Of a stretch of DNA of 48,133 nt, positions 41,939 to 43,871 are shown piece after piece. Source of the stretch: Firmicutes bacterium ADurb.Bin300 (lineage in GTDB: Bacteria > Bacillota > Clostridia > Oscillospirales > Acutalibacteraceae); the NCBI GenBank assembly GCA_002069015.1, contig MWBL01000007.1, positions 1 to 48,133 of the forward strand, written 5' to 3'. Under the pieces are notes generated by a model. The model saw only the letters and a list, made by a program, of their open reading frames with translations, did no database searches and was not told where the DNA came from. Position 1 is the stretch's first letter. Each line of letters begins with the position of its first letter. The position numbers and the translations under genes are program-made.

Positions 41939-42013
41939 GCTGGTGTGGCTCAATGGCAGAGCAGCTCATTCGTAATGAGCAGGTTGTCAGTTCGATTCTG
42001 ACCACCAGCTCCA
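41939..42013 (+). tRNA. tRNA-Thr (CGT anticodon)
   Basis: A 75-nt cloverleaf with encoded CCA. The acceptor stem GCTGGTG/CACCAGC is complete; the anticodon stem GCTCA/TGAGC encloses TTCGTAA, anticodon CGT, which reads ACG. The T-arm has GTTCGATTC. Followed directly by a terminator. Confidence 0.94.
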
Positions 42014-42178: not shown

Positions 42179-42337
42179 TTACTTTTTCTCCACCGGAATC
42201 CAAATTTCATAATACCGCTTTTTGTTTCTTTCGGCATGATCTGTCCAAAGATGAAGAACTTCAATCACCAAATTATTTTTGTGCCTGTATCCCGAACCGG
42301 GTAGCCATGAATCAAAAATCAACTCATTGAGCGTAAA
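42179..42337 (-). pseudogene. C-terminal remnant of a GyrI-like effector-binding protein
   Basis: The minus strand holds 52 codons before a stop at 42179 that match the C-terminus of AraC-effector/GyrI-like proteins: NELIFDSWLPGSGYRHK near the start and RYYEIWIPVEKK at the end. An in-frame stop just upstream (42338-42340) and no N-terminal sequence show it is truncated. It is part of a small cluster of dead genes after tRNA-Thr. Confidence 0.65.
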
Positions 42338-42393
42338 CTAATTAATTGATTCTATAATATGTTTGGTATATATGCACAAATAAACGGTTGATA

Positions 42394-42722
42394 ATTTGTA
42401 AAATATTATCTCCTAAACCCTTATGAAGCAGAAGCCCTAAAATCGGAAATAACCGCCGAGATAATTGATAACCACACGCAAAGAGCTATAAATATAATGC
42501 TTTTTTTATATGCGCGGGCAATTTTTTCTTGACGGAAACAAGCGTACCGCAATGTTAGCGGCTAATAAGGCTGTTTCGTAATACTTGACAAGCAGCGGCG
42601 TGAATTGAGGTATAATTTCAACAGGAATAGAGATAATGCCTTGACCGTTTGCAATCATTTCCGATATGAAGGAGTTAGCGCAATTCATTTACGACAATTG
42701 TATTGACAGAATAAATTTTTAG
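42394..42722 (+). pseudogene. Decayed fic gene with internal inversion and frameshift
   Basis: Remains of a Fic-domain (AMPylase-fold) protein lacking its N-terminus. The first frame gives LLNPYEAEALKSEITAEIID and ends in MLFLYAR. One base out of phase it continues QFFLDGNKRTAMLAAN (42519-42566), the Fic core motif, with Gln where many Fic proteins have catalytic His. The next 109 nt read as Fic only on the minus strand (GQGIISIPVEIIPQFTPLLV), and the plus strand resumes with QFIYDNCIDRINF and the stop at 42720. GCTAA (42561-42565) and TTAGC (42675-42679) flank the flipped part. Reversing it restores a continuous frame from GNKRTAM to the stop. A minus-strand frame here (42506-42688) is an artefact of the flip. 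Fic genes of this kind often belong to toxin or phage-defence loci. Confidence 0.8.
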
Positions 42723-42740
42723 ACAGCCTGCATTTGCCGA

Positions 42741-42788
42741 AGACAAAAGCCGCAATGCACTATCCTGAAGAGAAGGTGCAAATGCGGC
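42741..42788 (-). terminator. Terminator of the cysK-nadA-mnmA operon
   Basis: On the minus strand GCCGCA-tt-TGCAC pairs with GTGCA-t-TGCGGC (arms 42776-42788 and 42749-42760) and is followed by TTTTGTCT. The small internal loop lowers stability. Confidence 0.6.
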
Positions 42789-42806: not shown

Positions 42807-43871
42807 TCAGTCGTTTACTGTTGAAATCGTACCGCCTCCTACGACATCGTCCCCGTCATAGAATACGGCGGCCTGTCCCGGCGTAACGGCTCTTTGCGCC
42901 TCTAAAAACTCAACGCGCACCGTTTCCTCGTCCACCGGAAATACGCGGGCGGGCTGTTCTTTCTGGCGGTAACGGATTTTGACCTTGATTTTCAGTATTT
43001 CGGGCGGCTTGTCAAAAGCTATCCAATTCAAGTCCTTTACCAAAAAAGCCTTTGCAAATAAATCCTCTTCTCTTCCCAGGACAACGGCGTTATCCGCTAC
43101 GCGCTTTTCGCACACATAAAGCGGTTCGGGAAGCGCCAACCCAAGTCCTTTGCGCTGTCCTATGGTATATCTTATAAGACCCTTGTGCCGTCCGAGTACG
43201 CGCCCCTCTTTATCCGTAAAATCGCCCCATGGGTATACTTTACCCGTCAAGTCTTCAATGGTTTCGGCGTAGTCACCGTCCGTTGCAAAGCAGATATCCT
43301 GGCTCTCCTTTTTTTTGGCGTTGTGAAAGCCCTGTTCTTTTGCAATTCGCCGCACCTCGCTCTTTTGATGCTCCCCGAGCGGAAACAAGCTGTGCCTAAA
43401 CTGCTCCTGTGTCAGATAAGACAAGAAATAACTCTGGTCCTTACCTGCATCTAACCCTTTTAACAAACGGCTCCTTCCGTTTTCGTATTTTATGCGCGCA
43501 TAGTGACCGGTAACTATGTGCTCACAGCCAAGCTCTCTTGCAAATTGCAGCAGCCTACCGAATTTTATATATCGGTTACATTCAATACAGGGGTTAGGTG
43601 TATCTCCCCGTTCATAGGCTTCGATAAACCTGCCTATTACCTGTTTTCTGAAATCGTCCGAAAGATCTAACATATGGTGCTCCATTCCCAAAGCGGAGGC
43701 TATGCGCAGGGCGCTTTCCGATTCCTCAAGCGAAAGGCATGAGGAATCGCTCTTCGGGCTGTGACTGAGCAGCATCGTTACCCCGATACACTCATACCCG
43801 CTTTTTTTCATAAGATATGCGGCGACTGAGGAATCAACTCCTCCGCTCATTGCGATAAGCGTCCTACTCAT
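42807..43871 (-). CDS. mnmA: tRNA 2-thiouridylase MnmA
   Basis: A 354-residue enzyme that makes 2-thiouridine at wobble U34 of Lys, Glu and Gln tRNAs. The PP-loop motif is SGGVDSSVAAYL; the two catalytic cysteines lie in NPCIECNRYIKF and ESQDICFA. Length fits the family. The start overlaps nadA by eight nt. Sulphur comes from a cysteine desulphurase, and cysK upstream would supply cysteine. Confidence 0.95.
   Translation of the reverse strand: MSRTLIAMSGGVDSSVAAYLMKKSGYECIGVTMLLSHSPKSDSSCLSLEESESALRIASALGMEHHMLDLSDDFRKQVIGRFIEAYERGDTPNPCIECNRYIKFGRLLQFARELGCEHIVTGHYARIKYENGRSRLLKGLDAGKDQSYFLSYLTQEQFRHSLFPLGEHQKSEVRRIAKEQGFHNAKKKESQDICFATDGDYAETIEDLTGKVYPWGDFTDKEGRVLGRHKGLIRYTIGQRKGLGLALPEPLYVCEKRVADNAVVLGREEDLFAKAFLVKDLNWIAFDKPPEILKIKVKIRYRQKEQPARVFPVDEETVRVEFLEAQRAVTPGQAAVFYDGDDVVGGGTISTVND

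What the first reader, a model, noticed from the sequence alone, without database searches (positions are those of the whole stretch)
42394..42722. fic pseudogene with a 119-bp internal inversion between 5-bp inverted repeats
The plus strand gives the Fic core (GNKRTAMLAAN) and a Fic C-terminal end (QFIYDNCIDRINF), but the segment between is Fic only on the minus strand. It is bounded by GCTAA (42561-42565) and TTAGC (42675-42679). Flipping 42561-42679 gives GNKRTAMLAANSFISEMIAN and onward to the stop in a single open frame, with codon phase preserved at both junctions. Inversion at such short repeats is unusual. It may be a chance event in a dying gene (there is also a frameshift near 42518 and no N-terminus), or a trace of an invertible switch.
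Basis: partly seen in the sequence, partly recalled or inferred. Interest (0 to 1): 0.75.

Follow-up and report, generated by a model that had tools for sequence, protein, structure and literature searches.

The report
Dead Fic gene with tiny inversion
A broken leftover of a bacterial gene holds a short stretch of about 90 bases flipped end for end; it looks like an ordinary copying or repair accident in a dead gene rather than a genetic switch.

Summary
The inversion is real, but smaller than reported and not at the reported repeats. A profile of 78 intact homologues, scanned over six frames, matches the + strand at columns 145-168, the - strand at 168-199, and the + strand again from about 200. 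Both + parts share one register, with no base gained or lost. The flipped segment is 42571-42660 (90 bp; 94 bp with the ambiguous ends GG/CC; 88 bp not excluded). A 5-bp inverted pair within 20 bp of both ends occurs in 68% of random placements. About 124 of ~220 columns are missing at the start and the frame is shifted, so the remnant cannot encode a whole Fic protein in either orientation. No PF00589 or PF00239 recombinase match lies on the contig; none of 34 other matching family genomes shows a flipped piece. Best reading: a one-off microinversion in a decaying gene. The switch reading is not supported. Low interest.

The parts
42440..42509 (+). Fic remnant, upstream piece (model columns about 125-148), in a frame different from the next piece; a frameshift lies between about 42500 and 42510. 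No Fic match was found upstream of 42440 (searched from 42330).
   Evidence: six-frame profile search, +2 frame, columns 125-155, i-Evalue 1.2e-4
42510..42570 (+). Fic core piece in + orientation (columns 149-168, contains DGNKRTA)
   Evidence: DNA 46 of 57 identical to intact homologue L002 over 42510-42566, reached by 1 of 96,154 window places, itself
42571..42660 (-). inverted segment, 90 bp: Fic columns 169-198 readable on the - strand only
   Evidence: over columns 169-198 60 of 90 bases match L002 on the - strand, 22 of 90 on the + strand
42569..42570 (+). GG, left end of the inversion (ambiguous 2 bp)
42661..42662 (+). CC, right end of the inversion (ambiguous 2 bp)
42663..42722 (+). 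Fic C-terminal piece in + orientation (columns 200-218) and the stop codon 42720-42722; same register as the core piece
42561..42565 (+).
42675..42679 (+).
42182..42337 (-). remnant of the C-terminal end of a GyrI-like / effector-binding protein, 5' part missing, divergent from the Fic remnant
   Evidence: hmmscan: residues 7-49 of 52 match PF06445 positions 113-154 of 155 (E 0.0013) and PF14526 positions 113-150 of 150 (E 0.0011), both below the curated cut-offs
41939..42013 (+). tRNA-Thr (CGT) upstream of the relic region
42807..43871 (-). mnmA-like gene downstream
   Evidence: PF03054, PF20258, PF20259

Best explanation
This is the dead 3' end of a Fic-domain gene in an unnamed bacterium. 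One short internal segment, 42571-42660 (90 to 94 bp; 88 bp not excluded), has been replaced in place by its own reverse complement. Shown: the three-piece +/-/+ order, the unbroken register and the near-absence of end homology (GG/CC). Inferred: a single error made the flip, either a polymerase switching to the opposite strand and back, or a break within the gene rejoined or copied in reverse. It stayed because the gene was already useless or was killed by that very event. It has no function and does not flip.
For: Unbiased six-frame profile search gives + columns 145-168, - columns 168-199, + columns ~200-221; the own-genome search with the 7-row profile A1 gives the same two strands, 42498-42725 (+) and 42569-42664 (-), and no third match up to E 10. 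The left and right + pieces are in one register with no net length change. 78 of 78 homologues have no gap over columns 150-214; these are from the best 80 of 437 relatives found, so the set leans to near relatives. Over columns 169-198, 60 of 90 bases match L002 on the - strand and 22 of 90 on the + strand. The gene start is missing and the frame shifts. End homology is only 2 bp.
Against: No sister genome with an un-flipped remnant was found: of 21 other genus members none matched this locus by DNA (one, G008, had a 38-base match inside an unrelated long open frame), so the timing of the flip is not shown. The closest homologue, L002, is from another genus of the same family, so the breakpoints rest on 66-81% DNA identity plus constant spacing, and columns 168, 169 and 199 are individually weak; an 88-bp flip (42572-42659) is not excluded, though E at column 169 (24 of 78 homologues) is likelier than the alternative A (1 of 78). 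No reads were available. The published human-chimpanzee microinversions all had inverted repeats of 3-75 nt (PMC8755829, passages); 2 bp is below that, so the mechanism is a guess.
Confidence: 0.88

Rival explanations
1. The 119-bp segment 42561-42679 was inverted by recombination or template switching between the 5-bp repeats GCTAA/TTAGC.
For: The two repeats exist and the - strand frame is open across the whole segment.
Against: 42663-42680 reads as Fic columns 200-205 on the + strand: 6.93 bits, reached by 5 of 96,232 window places, the site included; DNA 14 of 18 to L002, reached by 1 of 96,232, itself. The 119-bp version needs compensating gains and losses of about 3 residues where 78 of 78 homologues have none. 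5-bp inverted pairs within 20 bp of both ends occur in 68% of 5000 random placements, and within 15 bp of the real ends no 4-bp pair exists here.
Confidence: 0.03
2. Invertible switch: the segment flips back and forth under a site-specific recombinase and turns a Fic gene on and off (an intragenic inverton).
For: The flip is in place and conserves length; the genome holds 4 PF00589 and 12 PF00239 matches, so recombinases that could act at a distance exist.
Against: None of those matches is on the window's contig C7. Ends share 2 bp, whereas invertons have 10-40 nt repeats (PMC11892184, passages). The gene start is lost and the frame is shifted, so no orientation gives a whole Fic protein. Among 40 listed matches in 35 genomes only the window's own locus has pieces on opposite strands at one place.
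Confidence: 0.02
3. Assembly or amplification artefact: the flip is a chimera in the sequencing product.
For: The genome is a 175-contig draft of 95% completeness and 2.63% contamination; no reads are at hand.
Against: A chimera would have to make two junctions that keep the original register with no base lost; a segment of about 90 bp is short enough for single reads to span (inference).
Confidence: 0.07

Closest known systems
[quoted passage not shown] passages read, part of the abstract among them)
   Same: a short segment replaced by its reverse complement in place, usually pure; template switching or microhomology-mediated break-induced replication is proposed
   Different: those were about 20 nt long and all flanked by 3-75 nt inverted repeats; here about 90 bp with 2 bp, in a bacterial pseudogene, and blurred by divergence from the homologues
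Spacer inversion by polymerase template switching between inverted repeats in yeast (PMC8604942, abstract and outline)
   Same: inversion inside a coding sequence by a proposed replication error
   Different: acts between inverted repeat arms, which are absent at the breakpoints here
Invertons, including intragenic ones (PMC11892184 passages; Chanin 2024 and Milman 2023 seen only as reference-list entries there)
   Same: a DNA segment in or near a gene in reverse orientation
   Different: no 10-40 nt repeats, no invertase on the contig, no second orientation seen, dead gene
Fic-domain proteins with a Gln in place of the motif His (78 intact homologues, residue counts)
   Same: the remnant is a decayed member: same columns, Q at column 152, DGNKRTA core
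   Different: start missing, frameshift, internal inversion

Membership tests
Fic/DOC family (PF02661 superfamily) | homology to Fic-domain proteins | tested here: met
   pieces match a profile of 78 intact homologues; of 4 intact homologues scanned, 2 exceed the PF02661 cut-off (L002, L008) and 2 fall just below (L005, L010). The remnant itself is not detected by PF02661.
Fic/DOC family (PF02661 superfamily) | catalytic His of the HxFx(D/E)GN motif (motif recalled) | tested here: not met
   the remnant has Q at column 152, as do 75 of 78 intact homologues; 1 of 78 has H, 1 K, 1 R; the column aligns with the H of HPFTDGNGR in 5jj6
Fic/DOC family (PF02661 superfamily) | complete open reading frame | tested here: not met
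   first ~124 columns absent, frameshift, inverted segment
Inverton (site-specific invertible element) | flanking inverted repeats of 10-40 nt (PMC11892184, passages) | tested here: not met
   2 bp at the breakpoints
Inverton (site-specific invertible element) | invertase nearby | tested here: not met
   0 of 4 PF00589 and 0 of 12 PF00239 matches of the genome on contig C7; other recombinase families were not searched
Inverton (site-specific invertible element) | both orientations present in a population | not testable with these tools
   no reads and no second genome of the species
Microinversion | segment replaced in place by its reverse complement, without gain or loss | tested here: met
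   common register of both + flanks and symmetric - register; 78 of 78 homologues gapless
Microinversion | flanking inverted repeats of at least 3 nt (as in PMC8755829, passages) | tested here: not met
   2 bp; longer repeats could have decayed since

The most novel reading that the evidence does not exclude
A precise ~90-bp inversion with essentially no end homology points to a repair or replication process in this lineage that makes pure microinversions without inverted repeats, and such relics may be common but unseen in bacterial pseudogenes.
Probability: 0.1. Interest if true: 0.4.

Novelty: new member of a known kind. Interest (0 to 1): 0.17.

Why it matters
It is a clean example of how a short in-place inversion can be recognised in a pseudogene from protein register alone, and a caution that short inverted repeats near a breakpoint are mostly chance. 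It does not add a new mechanism or a new switch.

Tried and rejected
Rejected: the 119-bp boundaries; the 5-bp repeats as cause; a recombinase switch. Led nowhere: a tblastn of the inverted piece in plasmids (none); the G008/L003 DNA match, which lies inside an unrelated long open frame; the left junction sequence in viral contigs (none); PF02661 in the own genome (none); Pfam on the short Fic pieces (no family). A 9-bp inverted match of 42442-42450 with 42657-42665 across the right junction (within pair I2) was set aside as chance, because both halves of that junction are already explained by Fic homology; its chance was not computed. The GyrI-like peptide found no relative among the loci held other than copies of the window itself, so one deletion removing both 5' ends is a guess.

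Errors of mine: the C-terminal piece was translated out of frame and so found nothing; it was read in frame. In one search the script looked for one file per locus and read only L001.fa; it was rerun. In one search the first chance test used 15-bp flanks that stopped short of TTAGC (and found no pair of 4 bp or more); it was redone with four flank sizes. Two of 80 homologues (L097, L107) were dropped before the profile because the open frame from the match start was under 190 residues.

Full report
Setting. The window is bases 1-48133 of contig C7 of a 2.2-Mb, 175-contig draft genome (95% complete, 2.63% contamination). The finding lies between a tRNA-Thr gene (41939-42013) and an mnmA-like gene on the - strand (42807-43871). 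The nearest intact Fic homologue by DNA, L002, lies in another genus of the same family. Its protein is 100% identical over residues 1-220 to one in the named record JAISGQ010000009.1, 'Oscillospiraceae bacterium isolate Hm464_bin109', a MAG (L043).

The observation. To test the order without assuming it, I built a profile from 78 of 80 homologues of a genome scan (437 relatives found, best 80 kept; two short ones dropped) and searched all six frames of 42330-42760 separately, with X at stops. Three frames match clearly. The +2 frame matches at columns 125-155 (i-Evalue 1.2e-4). The +0 frame covers columns 145-221 (3e-18), but its middle is a poor match with stops. The -0 frame covers columns 168-199 (5.8e-12). 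The fourth reported frame, -2, is not significant (0.61). The good part of the + match stops at column 168 and resumes at about 200, and the - match fills that hole. A search of the own genome with the 7-row profile A1 gives the same two places, 42498-42725 (+) and 42569-42664 (-), and no other match up to E 10.

The breakpoints. Column-by-column log-odds show that the left + piece (column c at 42498+3(c-145)) and the right + piece (column 200 at 42663) are in the same register: 42498+165=42663. Nothing was gained or lost. The - codons are symmetric with the + codons about 42615.5. The strong columns put the first change between 167 (+) and 170 (-) and the second between 198 (-, 42572-42574) and 200 (+, 42663-42665). 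With the symmetry this leaves 42569-42662 at most and 42572-42659 at least, 88 to 94 bp. The base pairs 42569/42662 and 42570/42661 are complementary (GG/CC) and 42571/42660 is not, so 90, 92 and 94 bp describe one and the same event. The 88-bp version would put A rather than E at column 169; E is found in 24 of 78 homologues and A in 1 of 78, so I prefer 90-94 bp. Over columns 169-198, 60 of 90 bases match L002 on the - strand and 22 of 90 on the + strand.

Why not 119 bp. It scores 6.93 bits in columns 200-205, reached by 5 of 96,232 places on both strands of the window, the site included, and 14 of 18 bases match L002, reached by 1 of 96,232, itself. The neighbouring + pieces are equally unique: 46 of 57 for 42510-42566 and 26 of 39 for 42681-42719, one place each. 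All 78 homologues have exactly the same spacing over columns 150-214, so the surplus and missing residues that the 119-bp flip implies have no parallel among them. The two 5-bp repeats fall in codons outside the inversion. Such a pair within 20 bp of both ends occurs in 68.3% of 5000 random placements in this window, and within 25 bp in 84.3%; within 15 bp of the real ends there is not even a 4-bp pair, although 90.8% of random placements have one.

Is the gene alive? No. Columns 1 to about 124 are absent here and were not found elsewhere in the draft. The upstream piece is in another frame than the core; the shift lies between about 42500 and 42510, in or beside a T7 run. The present + frame stops inside the inverted part (42579). 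Intact copies exist in other genomes: 8 of 294 other genomes of the order match the inverted piece alone, each within an open frame of 221-321 residues without stops (9 of 295 with the own genome). 34 of 199 other genomes of the family match the family profile at E 1e-5, many of them by distant or partial members (35 of 200 with the own genome); one, G020, is of the same genus. Among the 40 matches listed only the window's own locus shows pieces on opposite strands at one place.

Mechanism. Shown: an in-place, length-conserving inversion with 2 bp of end homology. Inferred: one replication or repair accident. In a human-chimpanzee comparison all definite microinversions had flanking inverted repeats of 3-75 nt, and template switching or microhomology-mediated break-induced replication was proposed (PMC8755829, passages); in yeast, template switching between repeat arms inverts spacers (PMC8604942, abstract). 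Here no such arms are seen, so I cannot choose between a template switch and break repair. A recombinase switch is disfavoured: invertons have 10-40 nt repeats (PMC11892184, passages), and none of the 4 PF00589 and 12 PF00239 matches of the genome lies on this contig. An artefact is not excluded, as no reads are held.

Literature. Searches for bacterial microinversions with pseudogenes (ten papers listed, one opened for passages), for intragenic invertons, for template switching and short inversions and for Fic pseudogenes with inversions (none) showed no report of this kind in their listings; only those searches of the held library stand behind that statement.

Surroundings. A second gene end lies back to back with the Fic remnant: residues 7-49 of the 52-residue frame 42182-42337 (-) match the C-terminal end of GyrI-like profiles, below the curated cut-off. 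Both remnants lack their 5' parts and face away from 42338-42440, which one deletion through a divergent pair would explain; this is a guess, since no relative with that arrangement was found among the loci held.

Side result. The intact family has Gln at the place of the Fic motif histidine in 75 of 78 members (alignment to 5jj6). It is distantly related to FICD structures (best E 9.9e-11) and to DOC (TIGR01550, 19.9 and 23.1 bits against a cut-off of 38.65), and two intact members match PADLOC's candidate defence models PDC-S04 weakly (best E 1.3e-8 and 1.6e-5). What the intact proteins do was not studied.

Noticed in passing
Fic homologues L043-L122 (78 of 80 used), model column 152: This intact Fic family has Gln instead of the motif His in 75 of 78 members (His in 1), with GNK invariant in 78 of 78: a widespread Fic subfamily that may lack classical catalysis. 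Two members match PADLOC PDC-S04 candidate defence models weakly.
   Followed up: partly
42182-42337 (-): C-terminal remnant of a GyrI-like / effector-binding protein back to back with the Fic remnant; both lack their 5' parts.
   Followed up: partly
42807-43871 (-) and L014-L034: The window's mnmA-like gene is 53-62% identical to copies in 4 other genus members but only 40-43% to those in 15 others; G014 holds both kinds about 4 kb apart on one contig. This suggests two mnmA lineages.
   Followed up: no
42442-42450 and 42657-42665: A 9-bp perfect inverted match spans the right breakpoint of the inversion (within pair I2); probably chance.
   Followed up: no
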